Source: Planctomycetota bacterium
Lineage (GTDB): Bacteria > Planctomycetota > GCA-002687715
DNA length: 51,464 nucleotides
Assembly (NCBI GenBank): GCA_009691765.1
Contig: SIAO01000015.1
Location: 1 to 51,464, forward strand
Reading direction: 5' to 3'
Positions within the stretch are counted from its first letter, which is position 1. Each line of letters opens with the position of its first letter. This document shows, piece by piece, positions 35,965-45,136 of this stretch. The position numbers were made by a program, and so were the translations under genes. The notes beneath the pieces were generated by a model. It made no database searches, was not told where the DNA came from, and saw only the letters and a program-made list of their open reading frames with translations.

Positions 35965-35982
35965 CAACCATTGGAGACCGCA

Positions 35983-37143
35983 ATGGCGCAAATCAATGCC
36001 ACGCCCACGAGCCGCCCAGTGCTGCTCGTTCTTGCATTGGCCCTCGTCGTCCTCCTCTGCTACGGCATGAGGGTGGCGTTTGAAAAACCCGGGACCGCAT
36101 TGAAAGCTGAAATGCTAGCCAGTGCAGGGGCAGGGACCAGCTTCACCTTGGAAGACGGCGCGAGAATCCCAGGGACTGGCAACATCCTCGTCGAGGATGA
36201 ACTGGTTGCTGTGCAGCGCGTCACTGCTGAAGGCAGCCCGGTGAACAGCGGCATCTTGCTGCTGAACAACCAGCACACCTTCAAGGTGGTGGAGCGCGGA
36301 GCTGCGGGCACCAAGGTCACAAACCACGCGGCAGGCGCCAGCGTGAAAGAACCGGGAACGCTGTTCTTCCCAGAGAACTTCGCATCCTTCGGCGATGAGG
36401 TGGATGAGCTTTTCTATCTCATCCTCTGGATCACAGGGATCGCCTTCATTCTCACTGAGGGTTTCTTCCTGTTCTGCGTCTTCTCATTCTGGGCCAAGCC
36501 CGGCATGCGCGCGCATCACTTGCATGGCCATCACACTCTCGAATTGGTGTGGACACTCGTGCCCGCCATCATCCTCGTGGCCCTCGCGCTCTTGCAAGCC
36601 GGCATGTGGAAATCCATGAAGATGGAGATTCCACTCGCTGACTCACCCGATGTGTTTGAGGTGCAAGTGGCCGCACAGCAGTTCCAATGGAACTTCCGCG
36701 TTGCAGGCAGCGACGGAAAGTTCGCAACCCCGGACGACGTGCCAAGCGTTGGCGAACTCCACGTCCCTGTTGGCAAGAAAGTGCGCGTCGTGCAGCGTTC
36801 GATCGACGTCATCCACTGCTTCTTCTTGCCGAACTATCGCGTGAAGCAGGACGTCGTGCCGGGCCTCGCAGTACCCGTGTGGTTCGACACCTCGCGCGCC
36901 GGGCGCTTCCCCATCATGTGCGCCGAGCTTTGCGGCTTGGGCCACACCAAGATGGGCGGCACGCTCGTGGTGCACGAAACAGCAGATTTCAAAACGTGGC
37001 TGGAGAAGGAATCAACTCTCTGGACCAGCGAAAACGACGGCCAGGACCGACCGGATTGGTCAGGCGCTTCTTCGAAGATCTGGTGGTGGTGGGACCAACA
37101 CGATGTTGGGGTGCACTACCAGGGCGAAAAGACGAACCGCTGA
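35983..37143 (+). CDS. ctaC: Cytochrome c oxidase subunit II (CuA)
   Basis: The protein has 386 residues from ATG 35983 (GGAG 35973-35976 is 6 nt upstream). The CuA ligands are H278 in DVIHCFF and C313, E315, C317, H321 and M324 in CAELCGLGHTKM. Two classical membrane helices are at about 145-165 and 185-205. An additional N-terminal helix (VLLVLALALVVLLCYG) and a roughly 90-residue extracytoplasmic beta segment (about 40-130, DGARIPGTGNILVEDELVAV) precede them, so the protein is about 100 residues longer than usual. No haem c motif is present, so this is not a caa3-type fusion. It receives electrons from the cupredoxin or cytochromes encoded nearby. Confidence 0.95.
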   Translation: MAQINATPTSRPVLLVLALALVVLLCYGMRVAFEKPGTALKAEMLASAGAGTSFTLEDGARIPGTGNILVEDELVAVQRVTAEGSPVNSGILLLNNQHTFKVVERGAAGTKVTNHAAGASVKEPGTLFFPENFASFGDEVDELFYLILWITGIAFILTEGFFLFCVFSFWAKPGMRAHHLHGHHTLELVWTLVPAIILVALALLQAGMWKSMKMEIPLADSPDVFEVQVAAQQFQWNFRVAGSDGKFATPDDVPSVGELHVPVGKKVRVVQRSIDVIHCFFLPNYRVKQDVVPGLAVPVWFDTSRAGRFPIMCAELCGLGHTKMGGTLVVHETADFKTWLEKESTLWTSENDGQDRPDWSGASSKIWWWWDQHDVGVHYQGEKTNR

Positions 37144-37161: not shown

Positions 37162-38988
37162 ATGCACTTACTGGAAGCCACTGACTTCAACGTCACCACC
37201 ACTCCTTGGCTGGTCATTCTCGGTCTATGCGTCCTGATGGCCTTGGTGCGCCTCATTGCGCCCAAGTTCTACAGCCATTACCTGTGGTCCGGCGACCACA
37301 AGATGATCGGCAAACAGTTCCTCGTCTCGTCGCTGCTGTGGGCTGTCGTGGGCGGAGCCTTAGCCCTCGGCGTGCGCTGGCAGTTGGCATGGCCCGGAAG
37401 CGAAGTGCCGGGATTCAAAGCGCTCTTCGGTTGGCCTGATGGCGGTGCTGCTCCCGAGCACTACAACATCATGTTCACCATGCATGCCTCGGTGATGATC
37501 TTCTTCGTCATCATCCCGCTGCTGGTCGGCGCCTTCGGCAACTTTGTCGTGCCGCTGCAAATCGGCGCGCAAGACATGGCCTTCCCCTTCTTGAATGCGC
37601 TGTCCTATTGGCTGATGTGGCCAGCATTCATCTTCATGGCGTTCAGCTTCTATGTCCCCGGCGATGGCGCGGGCGCGGGCTGGACCAGTTACCCGCCGCT
37701 TTCAGAAACCATGTTGGGTGACGGCCAAACACTGTGGTGCATGGGCGTGTGGTTCGTTGGTTGGTCATCTATCTGCGGTGCGGTGAACTACATCACCACC
37801 ATTGTGAAGATGCGCGCCAAGGGCATGACGCTGTTCCGCATGCCGCTGACAAGCTGGAGCATTCTGATCACCAGCATTCTCGTGCTCTGCGCCACTCCGG
37901 TCCTCGGCTCTGCCGTGACCATGTTGCTCATGGACCGAGAGTTCGGTTCCAGCTTCTTTGTGCCCGCTGCGCGCGTGGTGTCTGACGCCGCTCAAGCGAC
38001 CGGCGGAGGTCAGGTCATCCTCTGGCAGCACTTGTTCTGGTTCTACAGCCATCCCGCTGTGTACATCCTCGTGCTCCCAGCCATGGGCATGGTTTCTGAC
38101 ATGCTCGCAAACGCCTGCCGCAAGCCCGTCTTCGGCTACCGCCCGATGGTGTATTCCCTGATCGCCATCGCCTTCTTGGGCTTCGTCGTGTGGGGCCACC
38201 ACATGTTCCAGTCGGGAATGAACCCGGCCCTCGGCCGCACATTCATGATCGCTACCATGATGATCGCGCTGCCTTCCGCAGTAAAGACCTTCAACTGGCT
38301 CGCCACGATCTATCGCTCGCAAATGCAGCTCGAAGTGCACACGCTGTGCTCGCTGGCCTTCGTCTCGATGTGGATCATCGGCGGTCTCTCGGGCATCTTC
38401 ATGGCGGCAACGCCTGTCGACATCCAGATCCACGACACCTACGCCATCGTCGCGCACATCCACTACATCGTGTTCGGCTCGACACTCTTCAGCGTATTCG
38501 GAGCGATCTACTATTGGTACCCGAAGATGTTCGGGCGCACGATGAACAAGCCGCTGGCCTACACGCACTTCATCGTCACCTTCGTCGCGTTCCAGTTCAC
38601 CTTCTTCCCCATGCATGTCGTGGGCTCGCGCGGCATGTTGCGCCGCACAGCAGACCCATACTTCTACGGCAATCTGCAGGGCATGTTGCCCGTGAATCAG
38701 TTGATGACCGTCGCGGCCCTCATCCTTGGTGCTGCGCAGCTCGTCCTCGCCATCAACTTCTTCTGGAGCATGTTCGCTGGCAAGGTTTGCACTGAACGCA
38801 ATCCGTGGAAAGCCACCACCATGGAATGGAACACGCCCACACCTCCTGTGGGACACGGCAACTTCGACGTCATCCCCGAAGCGCACCGTGGGCCCTACGA
38901 ATACGCCGATCCTGACGCTGCGGAAGACTTCACGCCGCAATTCCAGGCACCAGCAGGCAGCGCCAAGCCTGTGCCACACGCTCACTGA
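37162..38988 (+). CDS. ctaD: Cytochrome c oxidase subunit I, A2-type
   Basis: The protein has 608 residues with 12 or more membrane helices. CuB and haem ligands are visible: H297 with Y301 (HPAVY), H346-H347 (GHHMF), H432 and H434 (AHIHY), and an N-terminal haem a His in FTMHAS. In the D-channel the usual Glu of HPEVY is absent; the motif is YSHPAVY with Y295-S296, the mark of A2-type haem-copper oxidases. It pumps protons while reducing O2 with cytochrome c or cupredoxin electrons. It is 18 bp after subunit II in the same operon. Confidence 0.97.
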   Translation: MHLLEATDFNVTTTPWLVILGLCVLMALVRLIAPKFYSHYLWSGDHKMIGKQFLVSSLLWAVVGGALALGVRWQLAWPGSEVPGFKALFGWPDGGAAPEHYNIMFTMHASVMIFFVIIPLLVGAFGNFVVPLQIGAQDMAFPFLNALSYWLMWPAFIFMAFSFYVPGDGAGAGWTSYPPLSETMLGDGQTLWCMGVWFVGWSSICGAVNYITTIVKMRAKGMTLFRMPLTSWSILITSILVLCATPVLGSAVTMLLMDREFGSSFFVPAARVVSDAAQATGGGQVILWQHLFWFYSHPAVYILVLPAMGMVSDMLANACRKPVFGYRPMVYSLIAIAFLGFVVWGHHMFQSGMNPALGRTFMIATMMIALPSAVKTFNWLATIYRSQMQLEVHTLCSLAFVSMWIIGGLSGIFMAATPVDIQIHDTYAIVAHIHYIVFGSTLFSVFGAIYYWYPKMFGRTMNKPLAYTHFIVTFVAFQFTFFPMHVVGSRGMLRRTADPYFYGNLQGMLPVNQLMTVAALILGAAQLVLAINFFWSMFAGKVCTERNPWKATTMEWNTPTPPVGHGNFDVIPEAHRGPYEYADPDAAEDFTPQFQAPAGSAKPVPHAH

Positions 38989-41968: not shown

Positions 41969-42265
41969 ATGTCCCATCAAGACCATGCTCACCCTGCTGC
42001 AACAGCTCACGCTCACCCTCCCTACTTGAAGGTGTTCGCACTTCTCGTGGCCCTCACGGTCGTGGAAGTGGTGGTCCCCTTCGTGCTGACTGGCAGCCGC
42101 GGCATTGCAGCCACATTGCTGATCGTCATCTCCGTGGTGAAGATCCTCTTCATTGCGCGCTACTTCATGCATTTGAAGTTCGACGCGAAGATCCTCGGGT
42201 TGGTGGCTTGCGCGCCGCTCGTGTGCGCCAGCATTCTGTCCTTTGTGCTGCTCTGGGATCACTGA
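41969..42265 (+). CDS. Cytochrome c oxidase subunit IV-like (COX4_pro/CyoD type)
   Basis: The protein has 98 residues. A His-rich N-terminus (HQDHAHPAATAHAHPPY) is followed by three hydrophobic helices (VFALLVALTVVEVVVPFVL, ATLLIVISVVKILFIARYF, GLVACAPLVCASILSFVLL). The phrase KILFIARYFMHLKFD is characteristic of prokaryotic oxidase subunit IV. It starts 12 bp after subunit III. A role in oxidase assembly is known for the family. The His-rich tail could also bind metal, which is speculative. Confidence 0.88.
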   Translation: MSHQDHAHPAATAHAHPPYLKVFALLVALTVVEVVVPFVLTGSRGIAATLLIVISVVKILFIARYFMHLKFDAKILGLVACAPLVCASILSFVLLWDH

Positions 42266-42272
42266 TGCAAGC

Positions 42273-42294
42273 GAGAGGCGCTGCGGCGCCTCTC
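42273..42294 (+). terminator. Perfect 9-bp hairpin between oxidase subunit IV and the UPNC gene
   Basis: GAGAGGCGC pairs with GCGCCTCTC around TGCG, ending 9 nt before ATG 42304. There is no T-run. It may delimit the oxidase transcript or modulate expression of the selenoprotein. Confidence 0.42.
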
Positions 42295-42303
42295 AACTCA
42301 CCC

Positions 42304-42552
42304 ATGCAACGCTGGCTACCATTCACACTGTTTCTCTTGCTCGGCCTTCTGCCGGGCACGGCCTACGCCTGACCCAACTGCAAGGCGGCGGTCGCTGCCA
42401 ACGACAAGAACGGCGAAGGCATGGCATTGGCCTACAACCTCAGCATCTATCTCATGATCGGCGCGGTGCTGAGCCTCGGTTGCTGGGTTGTATTCATGGT
42501 GCGCAAGGCCGACCGCGCCCACGCTGCCCAGGTCGGCGACTCGGACTCCTAG
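42304..42552 (+). CDS. Small UPNC membrane selenoprotein in the oxidase operon (in-frame TGA at 42370)
   Basis: The gene encodes 82 residues ending at TAG 42550-42552, with TGA at codon 23. Reading TGA as selenocysteine gives a signal peptide (residues 1-22, ending GTAYA) followed at once by U-P-N-C-K, then a polar stretch, one membrane helix (about 49-69, IYLMIGAVLSLGCWVVFMV) and a short basic/acidic tail. From memory, homologous small proteins beside planctomycete and other oxidase genes have CPNCK at this point, so U replaces the first Cys of a CxxC pair. A hairpin with GGUC loop begins at SECIS distance. After signal cleavage the selenocysteine would be at or near the N-terminus of the periplasmic part. 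Lying between subunit IV and SCO1, it may help reduce or metallate the oxidase copper sites. No Shine-Dalgarno is obvious, and each half is too short for a normal gene caller. Confidence 0.85.
42384..42399 (+). promoter_or_regulatory. Candidate bacterial SECIS element (UPNC gene)
   Basis: A 6-bp stem, GGCGGC (42384-42389) with GCTGCC (42394-42399), includes one G-U pair and closes the loop GGUC (42390-42393). Exactly 17 nt separate the TGA from the loop. From memory the E. coli fdhF SECIS likewise has 17 nt before an AGGUCU loop. Confidence 0.82.
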
Positions 42553-42588
42553 ACACTGCGGCCTCCATGGGCCTCGCGTCTCACTGCA

Positions 42589-42594
42589 TACACT
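42589..42594 (+). promoter_or_regulatory. Possible -10 box (TACACT) before the SCO1 gene
   Basis: TACACT ends 8 nt before ATG 42603 with no Shine-Dalgarno, the same arrangement as other candidate leaderless starts. It could give the SCO1 gene a promoter of its own. Confidence 0.33.
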
Positions 42595-42602
42595 GGAGCG
42601 CC

Positions 42603-43610
42603 ATGCGCATCATTCCCACGAGCCTCACGCTGCTGCTCCTGTTTGCCACGGTCAACGCGCAAGATTCTCACGCACAAGCGGAACTCCCGCGTCTTGGTTT
42701 CCGTTTGCCGACATTCAGCTTCGAGCGTGAAGACGGCAGCGCTTGCGGCTCCGAAGAACTCAAAAACGAAGTCTGGATCGCTGACTTCATCTACACCTAC
42801 TGCAGCGGACCTTGCCCAGCCATGACATCGGCCATGGGCAAGTTGCAAACGGAGCTGCGCTCGCTGAACGGCCTGAAGCTCGTGACGATCACCGTGGACC
42901 CCGAGCGCGACACGCGCAACGCGCTGCACGACTATGCGCAACGGAGCGGTGCCGATCCGACGCGCTGGGCCTTCCTACGCGGCACACCAGAATCCACAGC
43001 GCAACTCATGCGTGAGGGCTTCAAGCTCGGCGACCCAGGCGACCCCATCAATCACAGCACGCGCTTTGTCCTTGTAGACTGCGGCCTCGTGGTCCACGGC
43101 ATCTACGACCACGAAGACCCGGCCAGCATGGAGCGCCTCGTGCGCCACACACACATGCTGCTTGGACAAGAGCCGAAAATGGACCTGAGTTTTTTCCCAC
43201 CCGTGAATGCCACATTGAATGGGCTTGCAGCAATCTTGCTCTTCGTGGGTTGGCGCCGCATCAAGCGCCGCGACTTCGCAGGTCACAAGCGCGCCATGCT
43301 CGCGGCCTTCACCTGCTCGGCCGTGTTCCTCGCTTGCTACCTCACCTACCACGCACTCAAAGCCGGAGTGGTCACGAGCTTTCCAGAAGCGCATCCCACA
43401 GCGCGCATCGTCTACCTCTTTATTCTCGGGACGCACACTGTTCTCGCGGTAGCAGTGCTGCCTTTCATCATCCAAGCCATCCGCCAAGGCTTGAAAGACA
43501 ACCGCCCGAAACATGTCCGCGCCGCGCGCATCGCCCTACCGGTGTGGTTCTACGTTTCCGTGACCGGCGTGGTCATTTACTTCATGCTCTATCAGTGGTT
43601 CCCGGCATAG
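42603..43610 (+). CDS. SCO1/SenC copper chaperone fused to DUF420 membrane domain
   Basis: The protein has 335 residues. The signal peptide is MRIIPTSLTLLLLFATVNAQ. Residues about 30-185 are a SCO1 thioredoxin fold with the copper ligands C67 and C71 (YCSGPCP, CxxxC) and H151 (INHSTRF); a TVDPERDT segment is also characteristic. Residues about 190-335 carry four membrane helices of the DUF420 type (LNGLAAILLFVGW, MLAAFTCSAVFLACYL, LFILGTHTVLAVAVL, VWFYVSVTGVVIYFMLY), a fusion known from other bacteria. It delivers copper to CuA of subunit II. It is 50 bp after the UPNC selenoprotein gene, so thiol/selenol and copper chemistry are encoded side by side. Confidence 0.94.
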   Translation: MRIIPTSLTLLLLFATVNAQDSHAQAELPRLGFRLPTFSFEREDGSACGSEELKNEVWIADFIYTYCSGPCPAMTSAMGKLQTELRSLNGLKLVTITVDPERDTRNALHDYAQRSGADPTRWAFLRGTPESTAQLMREGFKLGDPGDPINHSTRFVLVDCGLVVHGIYDHEDPASMERLVRHTHMLLGQEPKMDLSFFPPVNATLNGLAAILLFVGWRRIKRRDFAGHKRAMLAAFTCSAVFLACYLTYHALKAGVVTSFPEAHPTARIVYLFILGTHTVLAVAVLPFIIQAIRQGLKDNRPKHVRAARIALPVWFYVSVTGVVIYFMLYQWFPA

Positions 43611-43672: not shown

Positions 43673-45136
43673 ATGCACGAGTTGCGCTTTCCCGGAGATG
43701 CCCGCAAGGCGGCCGATGCCGCCAACACCATTCTGCTTCTGGCCAGCGCTGACGCTTGGTCGGAAGGCTGGCCTTTCAACAGCATTTCCAAAGAGCTTGG
43801 CGCAGCGGCCGCCTCGTTGATGAAGGGCCTGAAGCCCGGCAGCACGGGAGCTCTGGCTGAAACACGTGTAGCGACGAAACGACTCGTGGTGGCGGTGCTG
43901 CCTACGAAGTTGTCGCGCCACAATTGCCCAGCGCGCAACGAAGCCGTGCTCTCTTGCGCCAAGCGCGCGCGAATCGAAGGAGAGTCGTTGGCGCTCGTGT
44001 GCCTCGATGCTCCGGCCCATGGCGAAGCCGTGGCCGTGGCGCTCAGCCGCGCGTTGCCGAATTTCAGCCGCAAGACCGAGGCCACAAAAAATGTGCGCCT
44101 CGCGGTGGCTGCGAGCGACCGACGCGGACATCCGGTTGCGTTCGATCAACGCACGCAGCATGTGGTGGCCGCTTCGCGTTGGGCTGCAGAGTGCGTCGAT
44201 ACGCCTCCCGCAGATCTCAACACCGACACTTTCGTCACACTCACGCGCAGCTTCATCAAAGGCTTGAAGGGCGTGAAAGTGACTGAGATCGTCGGCCCTG
44301 CGCTGCTGAAGAAGCGTTGCGGCGGCATCCATGCCGTCGGGCGCGCCGCGATGAAAGCGCCGCGCTTGCTGATCCTCGAACACGGGCCGAAGAAGTCGAA
44401 GCGCACAGTGGCTCTGGTCGGCAAAGGTGTGGTCTATGACACCGGCGGACTGTCACTGAAACCGACAACCGGCATGTGCACCATGAAAGGCGACATGGGC
44501 GGCGCCGCCGCTGTTGTGGGCGCTTTCAAAGTGCTTGTGGAATCGGGATTCAAAGGACGCCTCGTCGCGTTGGCGGCGCTTGCAGAAAACGCCATCGGGC
44601 CAGATTCATATCGCAACGATGACATTCTCACGCTGCACTCCGGGCACACGGTTGAAATCAACAACACCGACGCCGAAGGGCGTTTGCTGCTCGCTGATGC
44701 CGTCAGCTATGCCGCGCGCGTGCTGGAAGCCGAAGTCATCATTGATGTCGCCACGCTCACAGGCGCGCAACTCGTAGCCACAGGCATGCGTCACGCCGCT
44801 GTGGTCAGCAATCGCCAAGGGCTGGAAGAACTCGCCGTGCAATGCGGCAAGTCCAGCGGCGACCTCGTGCATCCCCTGCCCTTCGCGCCAGAGTTTTATC
44901 AAGCAGAGTTCGCTTCGGCTGTGGCCGACATGCGCAACTCGGTGAAAGACCGCTCGAACGCGCAGTCTTCGTGCGCGGCACAGTTCGTGTGGGCGCATAT
45001 TGACGACATAGATCCACACTGGCTGCATGTGGACATCGCTGGGCCAGCATTCCGCGACGATCGCGGCACAGGCTTCGGCGTCGGGTTGTTGGCATCTGTC
45101 GCCGAAGAGCTCGGCGCAGCGGATCTGAAGAACTGA
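43673..45136 (+). CDS. pepA: Leucyl aminopeptidase (M17)
   Basis: The protein has 487 residues; the Shine-Dalgarno GGAGGA lies 4-10 nt before the ATG. The M17 signatures are VGKGVVYDTGGLSLK (catalytic Lys and first metal Asp), KGDMGGAAAV and NTDAEGRLLLADAV (metal Asp/Glu and catalytic Arg). The N-terminal third is the divergent regulatory domain. It is a cytosolic di-metal exopeptidase that removes N-terminal residues. A TATGAT box lies at 43644-43649. It is followed 22 bp later by an M24 peptidase, so the two form a small peptide-degradation pair. Confidence 0.95.
   Translation: MHELRFPGDARKAADAANTILLLASADAWSEGWPFNSISKELGAAAASLMKGLKPGSTGALAETRVATKRLVVAVLPTKLSRHNCPARNEAVLSCAKRARIEGESLALVCLDAPAHGEAVAVALSRALPNFSRKTEATKNVRLAVAASDRRGHPVAFDQRTQHVVAASRWAAECVDTPPADLNTDTFVTLTRSFIKGLKGVKVTEIVGPALLKKRCGGIHAVGRAAMKAPRLLILEHGPKKSKRTVALVGKGVVYDTGGLSLKPTTGMCTMKGDMGGAAAVVGAFKVLVESGFKGRLVALAALAENAIGPDSYRNDDILTLHSGHTVEINNTDAEGRLLLADAVSYAARVLEAEVIIDVATLTGAQLVATGMRHAAVVSNRQGLEELAVQCGKSSGDLVHPLPFAPEFYQAEFASAVADMRNSVKDRSNAQSSCAAQFVWAHIDDIDPHWLHVDIAGPAFRDDRGTGFGVGLLASVAEELGAADLKN

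What the first reader, a model, noticed from the sequence alone, without database searches (positions are those of the whole stretch)
42304..42552. Undescribed small selenoprotein (UPNC) inside a cytochrome oxidase operon
Seen: ATG 42304, signal peptide, TGA at codon 23, then P-N-C-K, a membrane helix and a TAG stop, all in one frame. A 6-bp hairpin with GGUC loop begins its loop 17 nt after the TGA. Known: bacterial SECIS hairpins sit directly downstream of UGA with G in the loop, and thiol CxxC pairs are the usual place for Sec. Inferred: U replaces the first Cys of the CPNC motif found in homologous small oxidase-linked proteins (recalled, not searched). Lying between subunit IV and SCO1, it may be a selenol-based reductant or copper handler for oxidase assembly. 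Each half is so short that annotation would drop the gene.
Basis: partly seen in the sequence, partly recalled or inferred. Interest (0 to 1): 0.95.

Follow-up and report, generated by a model that had tools for sequence, protein, structure and literature searches.

The report
New oxidase-linked selenoprotein of planctomycetes
Among the cytochrome oxidase genes of this planctomycete lies a reading frame for an 82-residue protein with an in-frame TGA codon that is very likely read as selenocysteine; relatives across the phylum have either TGA or a cysteine codon there, so it would be a new selenium protein that likely helps the copper-loading step of oxidase assembly.

Summary
ORF 42304-42552 (TGA at codon 23, UPNC, one predicted membrane helix) lies between coxD and SCO1-DUF420. 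Its genome has selC, selA, selB and selD. Of 127 matches listed from 392 Planctomycetota genomes, 110 were examined; 108 carry the two-residue motif: 33 UxxC, 14 CxxU, 61 CxxC. So TGA stands at either cysteine of one CxxC pair. Of the 47 TGA-bearing genomes, 41 have tRNA-Sec and three more have SelA. The hairpin after the TGA (six pairs, GGUC loop from +18) is complete in 22 of 33 UxxC genes and in 0 of 61 CxxC genes. It covaries, and the protein sequence does not explain it. No Pfam or NCBIfam model or PDB fold matched the window protein, and the 2026 catalogue of 119 selenoprotein families names none like it. Oxidase, SCO or DUF420 genes lie nearby in 32 of 33 UxxC and 49 of 61 CxxC loci, but in only 6 of 14 CxxU loci. 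Best reading: a membrane-anchored selenol-thiol protein, predicted to face the periplasm, that reduces SCO/CoxB cysteines before copper loading; a copper(I) clamp is the close rival. Selenoprotein identity is near certain; function is inferred.

The parts
42304..42552 (+). coding sequence of the UPNC protein, 82 residues with TGA read as Sec, TAG stop
   Evidence: TGA-containing relatives; pN 0.10 against pS 0.43 over the 45 codons after TGA compared with G002
42304..42369 (+). hydrophobic N-terminus, likely signal peptide (residues 1-22, ends AYA)
   Evidence: hydrophobic N-terminus in 33 of 33 UxxC members; -3/-1 residues of signal-peptidase type in 27 of 33 by a simple rule of my own (no SignalP run)
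42370..42372 (+). in-frame TGA, predicted selenocysteine codon 23
   Evidence: aligned with TGC or TGT in 61 CxxC members
42370..42381 (+). U-P-N-C motif (UxxC)
   Evidence: both motif positions are Cys/Sec in 59 of 59 rows of alignment A2 (U shown as C)
42384..42399 (+). bSECIS hairpin: 6-bp stem, GGUC loop at 42390-42393 (+18 to +21)
42439..42501 (+). predicted membrane helix (about residues 46-66), followed by the basic stretch RKADR
   Evidence: hydropathy; AlphaFold2 helix 39-80
42273..42294 (+). 9-bp perfect hairpin between coxD and the start codon
   Evidence: sequence; a stem at the same place with different letters in G001 and G002
35971..37143 (+). CoxB, oxidase subunit II (bears the CuA domain)
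   Evidence: COX2 and COX2_TM
37162..38988 (+). CoxA, oxidase subunit I
   Evidence: COX1, 480.5 bits
39003..39986 (+). CtaA/COX15
   Evidence: PF02628
40058..40885 (+). CtaB/COX10 (the part of the ORF that was tested)
   Evidence: UbiA, PF01040
40925..41956 (+). CoxC, oxidase subunit III
   Evidence: COX3
41969..42265 (+). CoxD, oxidase subunit IV
   Evidence: COX4_pro
42603..43610 (+). SCO1-DUF420 fusion protein
   Evidence: SCO1-SenC 70.6 bits and DUF420 135 bits

Best explanation
The frame at 42304-42552 has a TGA that is conserved in relatives, is followed by a covarying hairpin and aligns with cysteine codons elsewhere, so it very likely encodes a membrane-anchored selenoprotein, which is predicted to act as a selenol-thiol reductant in copper-site assembly of cytochrome c oxidase. 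Shown: TGA at the same column in 33 genomes and at the second motif position in 14, Cys codons in 61 matches, the hairpin, the Sec machinery of the genome, and linkage to oxidase, SCO and DUF420 genes. Inferred: the N-terminal segment is cut off or stays as an anchor, so that U-P-N-C sits at or near an extracytoplasmic N-terminus, one helix follows, and the basic tail stays inside. Inferred: the selenolate attacks the disulfide of oxidised SCO or of the CuA cysteines of CoxB, forms a selenenylsulfide with Cys26 and frees the cysteines for copper, as TlpA does in Bradyrhizobium but without a thioredoxin fold. An upstream donor would re-reduce it.
For: Selenoprotein: TGA-bearing homologues; of 110 matches examined out of 127 listed from 392 genomes, 33 UxxC, 14 CxxU, 61 CxxC, 2 without the motif. 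tRNA-Sec in 41 of 47 TGA-form genomes against 25 of 58 genomes with only Cys forms (Fisher p 2.5e-6, not corrected for relatedness); SelA in 3 of the other 6 (G071, G040, G342). Own genome: tRNA-Sec 78.2 bits beside selA, selB over its cut-off, selD 363.9 bits. Hairpin: full 6-bp stem with GGUC loop at +18 in 22 of 33 UxxC (9 distinct stem sequences) and 0 of 61 CxxC; with the same protein and random synonymous codons mean 2.3, largest 8 in 2000 runs; covariation score 0.367 against 0.129 shuffled, 0 of 500 as high, slid controls 0.016-0.139. Ala-Val-Ala just after the motif in 23 of 33 UxxC but 1 of 61 CxxC, as expected if the hairpin dictates those codons. pN 0.10 against pS 0.43 downstream of TGA, G000 against G002. 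Role: any oxidase, SCO or DUF420 gene in the held stretch in 32 of 33 UxxC and 49 of 61 CxxC; DUF420 ends within 300 nt upstream in 19 of 33 and 38 of 61. TlpA reduces ScoI and COX II in B. japonicum (passage of PMC6696091).
Against: No experiment shows Sec or any activity. 11 of 33 UxxC genes lack the full stem in that register; 8 of 14 CxxU genes have a hairpin of -5 kcal/mol or better. The window hairpin alone is no better than shuffles. Three TGA-form genomes (G211, G213, G301; 67-79% complete) showed neither tRNA-Sec nor SelA. SelA matched over its cut-off, two of them strongly, also in 5 of 10 Cys-only genomes without tRNA-Sec, so SelA alone is weaker proof. Oxidase linkage is seen in only 6 of 14 CxxU loci and is missing in 12 of 61 CxxC loci. 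Sec at either position fits a two-ligand metal clamp at least as well as a fixed nucleophile. The protein has no room for a thioredoxin fold, and no donor of electrons is known.
Confidence: 0.55

Rival explanations
1. Copper(I) clamp: the Sec/Cys pair binds Cu(I) at the outer face of the membrane and hands it to SCO or straight to the oxidase; Sec acts as a soft ligand.
For: Sec sits at the first motif position in 33 and at the second in 14 of 108 members, as two equivalent ligands would allow; no Cox11 (PF04442) in any of 20 genomes tested and no PCuAC in the own genome, so copper donors other than SCO are wanting; the catalogue lists Sec in metal-handling proteins (Cu/Zn efflux, cation ATPase UxxC).
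Against: No conserved His or Met beside the motif is seen in alignment A1 (the nearly invariant Met51 lies in the predicted helix); Sec and Cys forms interchange, which redox pairs also do. Copper binding was not tested.
Confidence: 0.3
2. Small accessory subunit of the oxidase: the helix packs against subunits I or III, and the Sec/Cys pair protects or tunes the complex.
For: Gene between subunit IV and SCO in G000 to G004; one helix; weak profile similarity to quinol oxidase subunit II in 6 of 59 members, best E 1.5e-4.
Against: In most linked loci the gene follows DUF420, not the structural subunits; the subunit II matches lie in the helix and, where a score was shown, far under the cut-off (15.4 against 241 bits).
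Confidence: 0.12
3. TGA is a real stop, a sequencing error or pseudogene; the downstream part is not translated.
For: Table 11 ends the frame there; no protein data.
Against: Same TGA in 33 genomes, pN far below pS downstream, conserved covarying hairpin.
Confidence: 0.01
4. TGA is read as another residue (such as Trp) by a changed code.
For: None found.
Against: It aligns with Cys in 61 members; tRNA-Sec is present in the genome; coxD, just upstream, ends in TGA.
Confidence: 0.01

Closest known systems
TlpA of Bradyrhizobium (membrane-anchored reductant of ScoI and CoxB; passage of PMC6696091)
   Same: Membrane-anchored thiol pair that would serve the same substrates, SCO and subunit II; likewise part of oxidase assembly
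   Different: TlpA is a thioredoxin fold; this protein has about 20 residues between motif and helix, no PDB fold match and uses Sec
Bacterial UxxC and CxxU selenoproteins (catalogue of 119 families, PMC13188914)
   Same: Sec in a CxxC pair, Cys homologues, bSECIS after the UGA
   Different: The catalogue says most characterised ones have a thioredoxin-like fold; this one is a one-helix mini-protein, and Sec stands at either position within one family (the catalogue files such differences as subfamilies)
SO_0444 Cu/Zn efflux transporter, cation-transporting ATPase and MerT selenoproteins
   Same: Membrane-linked Sec motifs tied to soft metals
   Different: Transporters; the catalogue gives them other domains (NF033936, TIGR01525, PF02411). 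Those models were in the scanned libraries and are not among the families shown for members of A2 (25 of 35 and 25 of 34 shown)
Hypothetical protein GOS_C (NF045500, UxxC)
   Same: UxxC, named only as hypothetical
   Different: Its model is a 377-position Omp28-type protein; 0 of 14 genomes over cut-off, and no match at a locus of this family

Membership tests
bacterial selenoproteins | in-frame UGA with conserved sequence after it | tested here: met
   47 TGA-bearing members of 108 with the motif; pN 0.10, pS 0.43
bacterial selenoproteins | Cys homologues at the UGA position | tested here: met
   61 CxxC matches, codons TGC 36 and TGT 25
bacterial selenoproteins | SelA, SelB, SelD and tRNA-Sec in the genome | tested here: met
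   in the other TGA-form genomes only tRNA-Sec (41 of 47 in all) and, for 6, SelA were tested
bacterial selenoproteins | bSECIS: 3-9 nt loop, upper stem 4-16 bp, G in the first two loop bases, 16-37 nt from UGA, energy -7.5 or lower (model as given in PMC13188914) | tested here: met
   window: 4-nt loop GGUC, 6 bp, 17 nt, -9.5 kcal/mol; not every relative fits: 11 of 33 lack the full stem in this register
bacterial selenoproteins | selenium in the protein | not testable with these tools
   needs labelling or mass spectrometry
thioredoxin-fold UxxC selenoproteins | thioredoxin-like fold | tested here: not met
   AlphaFold2 model is three helices (5-14, 24-32, 39-80; mean pLDDT 77.4, pTM 0.47, motif block about 58-66); no PDB match at E 10
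TlpA-type SCO reductants | reduces SCO and CoxB | not testable with these tools
   linkage to SCO/DUF420 only
families in Pfam and NCBIfam | match to a curated model | tested here: not met
   window protein: 0 NCBIfam families, Pfam best E 0.21 at 12.2 bits under a cut-off of 23.8; of 59 members no model matched more than 7 at E 0.1, best single E 1.5e-4 (cut-offs not shown there)

The most novel reading that the evidence does not exclude
Aerobic respiration in much of Planctomycetota runs through a selenium-dependent copper-site assembly step: a one-helix selenoprotein whose selenocysteine is the first residue of the mature protein, can sit at either of two interchangeable positions, and whose flanking protein sequence (Ala-Val-Ala) is dictated by its own SECIS hairpin rather than by protein function.
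Probability: 0.4. Interest if true: 0.88.

Novelty: new variant of a known kind. Interest (0 to 1): 0.78.

Why it matters
If right, selenium enters the assembly of the oxygen-reducing enzyme itself, in a phylum-wide gene family that standard annotation reads as two fragments and that the 2026 catalogue of 119 selenoprotein families does not name. The natural set of UxxC, CxxU and CxxC versions lets one ask directly what selenium adds to a thiol pair and why its position can switch. The matching hairpin and protein sequences also show an RNA signal shaping a protein: Ala-Val-Ala is present in 23 of 33 UxxC members and 1 of 61 CxxC members.

Tried and rejected
Single-sequence folding of the region after TGA gave no significance; alignment evidence replaced it. 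A protein search with one Cys member found only itself; a 59-row alignment found 145 proteins, 120 listed. Two listed names, a short-chain dehydrogenase and an oxidase subunit 2, are single source names on short contigs and were not followed up. GOS_C was suspected and excluded. The second own-genome match (C13:140548) lacks the motif and was set aside, as was G288, whose TGA stands in SCUPP. 17 of 127 listed matches (weak or partial) were not examined. My first motif count put G151 under CxxC by mistake; corrected to CPMU. A first Fisher test counted matches; the per-genome one is used. A first neighbour search used a wrong SCO frame and was repeated. A tree of the adjacent DUF420 (72 rows, 134 columns) needs at least 12 label changes but its well-supported branches force only 2 for UxxC and 2 for CxxC, so the number of Sec/Cys switches is open; one well-supported case is Cys form G334 beside UPAC form G239, inside a UxxC clade. 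The supplementary table of planctomycete selenoprotein candidates of PMC4807772 could not be seen.

Papers, what was seen: PMC13188914 outline, abstract and sections 5 and 7 in full; PMC12013277, PMC2398784, PMC9312934, PMC5029168, PMC4807772 and PMC6696091 passages only; all others search listings.

Full report
What is there. The frame 42304-42552 reads as a leader, U-P-N-C, a short linker, one hydrophobic helix, a basic stretch and a TAG stop when TGA is read through. It lies between coxD and an SCO1-DUF420 fusion in a run of coxB, coxA, ctaA, ctaB and coxC. The window is contig C9 of a 2.58 Mb, 90% complete genome. The phylum is Planctomycetota: the contigs of the neighbours G001-G004 have the same lengths as the named planctomycete or uncultured records found.

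Can the cell make selenocysteine? Yes by gene content: tRNA-Sec (78.2 bits, anticodon tca) beside selA, selB over its cut-off and selD. The selD frame itself carries a TGA in PGGGUASK.

Is the TGA conserved? A search of 59 relatives found TGA-bearing homologues. A profile search of 392 genomes of the phylum matched 118. Of 127 listed places 110 were fetched and read: 33 UxxC, 14 CxxU, 61 CxxC and two without the motif. Thus TGA occurs at the first cysteine in 33 genomes and at the second in 14 others. One genome, G097, has a UPSC copy and a CAMC copy. tRNA-Sec was found in 41 of the 47 TGA-form genomes and in 25 of 58 genomes with only Cys forms (p 2.5e-6, relatedness not corrected). Of the six without tRNA-Sec, three have SelA; the other three are 67-79% complete. 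Against this, SelA-family matches over the cut-off also occur in 5 of 10 Cys-only genomes without tRNA-Sec, two of them strong.

Is there a SECIS? In 22 of 33 UxxC genes a full 6-bp stem closes a GGUC loop that starts exactly 18 nt after TGA, in nine distinct stem sequences; in CxxC genes 0 of 61. Random synonymous codons for the same proteins give 2.3 on average and at most 8 in 2000 runs. Covariation is 0.367 against 0.129 in shuffles and 0.016-0.139 when slid. In CxxU genes the best hairpin loop starts mostly at +20 (9 of 14), and 8 of 14 reach -5 kcal/mol. In UxxC genes the best hairpin reaches -5 in 30 of 33, and in CxxC genes in 13 of 61. Limits: 11 of 33 UxxC genes lack the full stem in this register, and the window hairpin alone is not beyond chance.

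An imprint on the protein. Ala-Val-Ala follows the motif in 23 of 33 UxxC, 1 of 61 CxxC and 0 of 14 CxxU members. These codons form the loop and inner stem, so the conserved stretch after UPNC is best read as RNA signal (inference).

Selection. Between G000 and G002 the 45 codons after TGA show pS 0.43 and pN 0.10. In a 27-codon helix stretch against G001 the contrast is weaker (0.43 and 0.31).

Topology and fold. A hydrophobic N-terminus is seen in 33 of 33 UxxC members and a helix in 33 of 33; residues before the motif fit signal peptidase by a simple rule in 27 of 33 (starts chosen by rule; no SignalP). If cut there, Sec would be the first residue. The tail is basic on average, which fits N-out. 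AlphaFold2 gives helices 5-14, 24-32 and 39-80 with mean pLDDT 77.4, lower around the motif, and no PDB match. Profile search of PDB sequences gave nothing better than E 0.053.

Context. Oxidase, SCO or DUF420 genes lie in the held stretch in 32 of 33 UxxC, 49 of 61 CxxC and 6 of 14 CxxU loci; DUF420 ends within 300 nt upstream in 19, 38 and 5 of these. In G000-G004 the gene lies between coxD and SCO/DUF420; elsewhere it mostly follows DUF420. Two loci also show ABC-transporter genes by sequence reading (G057 and G055; not tested by Pfam). Cox11 was not found in any of 20 genomes, nor PCuAC in the own genome.

Mechanism. CuA assembly needs the cysteines of subunit II reduced before copper is inserted, and TlpA reduces ScoI and COX II in B. 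japonicum (passages of PMC6696091). A UxxC pair on a membrane anchor beside SCO fits that job, and I take it as the most likely (about 0.55). The free choice of position for Sec fits a two-ligand Cu(I) clamp equally well or better (about 0.3). Selenoprotein identity itself I put at 0.97.

Novelty. Pfam and NCBIfam do not know the window protein, and no model covers more than 7 of 59 members. The 2026 catalogue of 119 families names no oxidase- or SCO-linked one. GOS_C was tested and excluded; GOS_A, known from the 2008 paper's passages, could not be tested. Proteins found are mostly unnamed or hypothetical, and the organism names shown there are planctomycetes; one search adds one from Eisenibacter elegans, a bacteroidote. 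Papers that hold both Planctomycetota and selenoprotein number 10 and none has either word in title or abstract. PMC4807772 reports planctomycete selenoproteins, but its table of candidates could not be seen.

Noticed in passing
L189 (G000:C23), frame from 5081: selD of the same genome carries an in-frame TGA (PGGGUASK), so the genome likely has at least a second selenoprotein.
   Followed up: partly
window 42273-42294: Perfect 9-bp hairpin between coxD and the start codon; G001 and G002 have a stem at the same place with different letters, G003 and G004 show no obvious like one. No shuffle control was made.
   Followed up: partly
window 42243-43610: The SCO1-DUF420 frame is open upstream across the UPNC gene to a TTG at 42243 (455 aa), which could lead gene callers to hide the UPNC gene.
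   Followed up: no
L128 and L129 (G097): One genome has both a UPSC copy (TGA) and a CAMC copy of the family.
   Followed up: no
L185 (G288:C214:1902-2123): A match with TGA in SCUPP instead of the CxxC-type motif; the genome has a tRNA-Sec match over the cut-off (53.2 bits).
   Followed up: no
P0147: A Cys member (CAMC) in Eisenibacter elegans, Bacteroidota: the family likely reaches beyond the phylum.
   Followed up: partly
20 genomes; own genome: No Cox11 (CtaG) match in 20 of 20 genomes and no PCuAC in the own genome, though an oxidase with COX15 and COX10 is present: how CuB is loaded is open.
   Followed up: no
window 43673-45136: An M17 aminopeptidase follows SCO1-DUF420; by sequence reading a similar protein follows in G003 too.
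   Followed up: no
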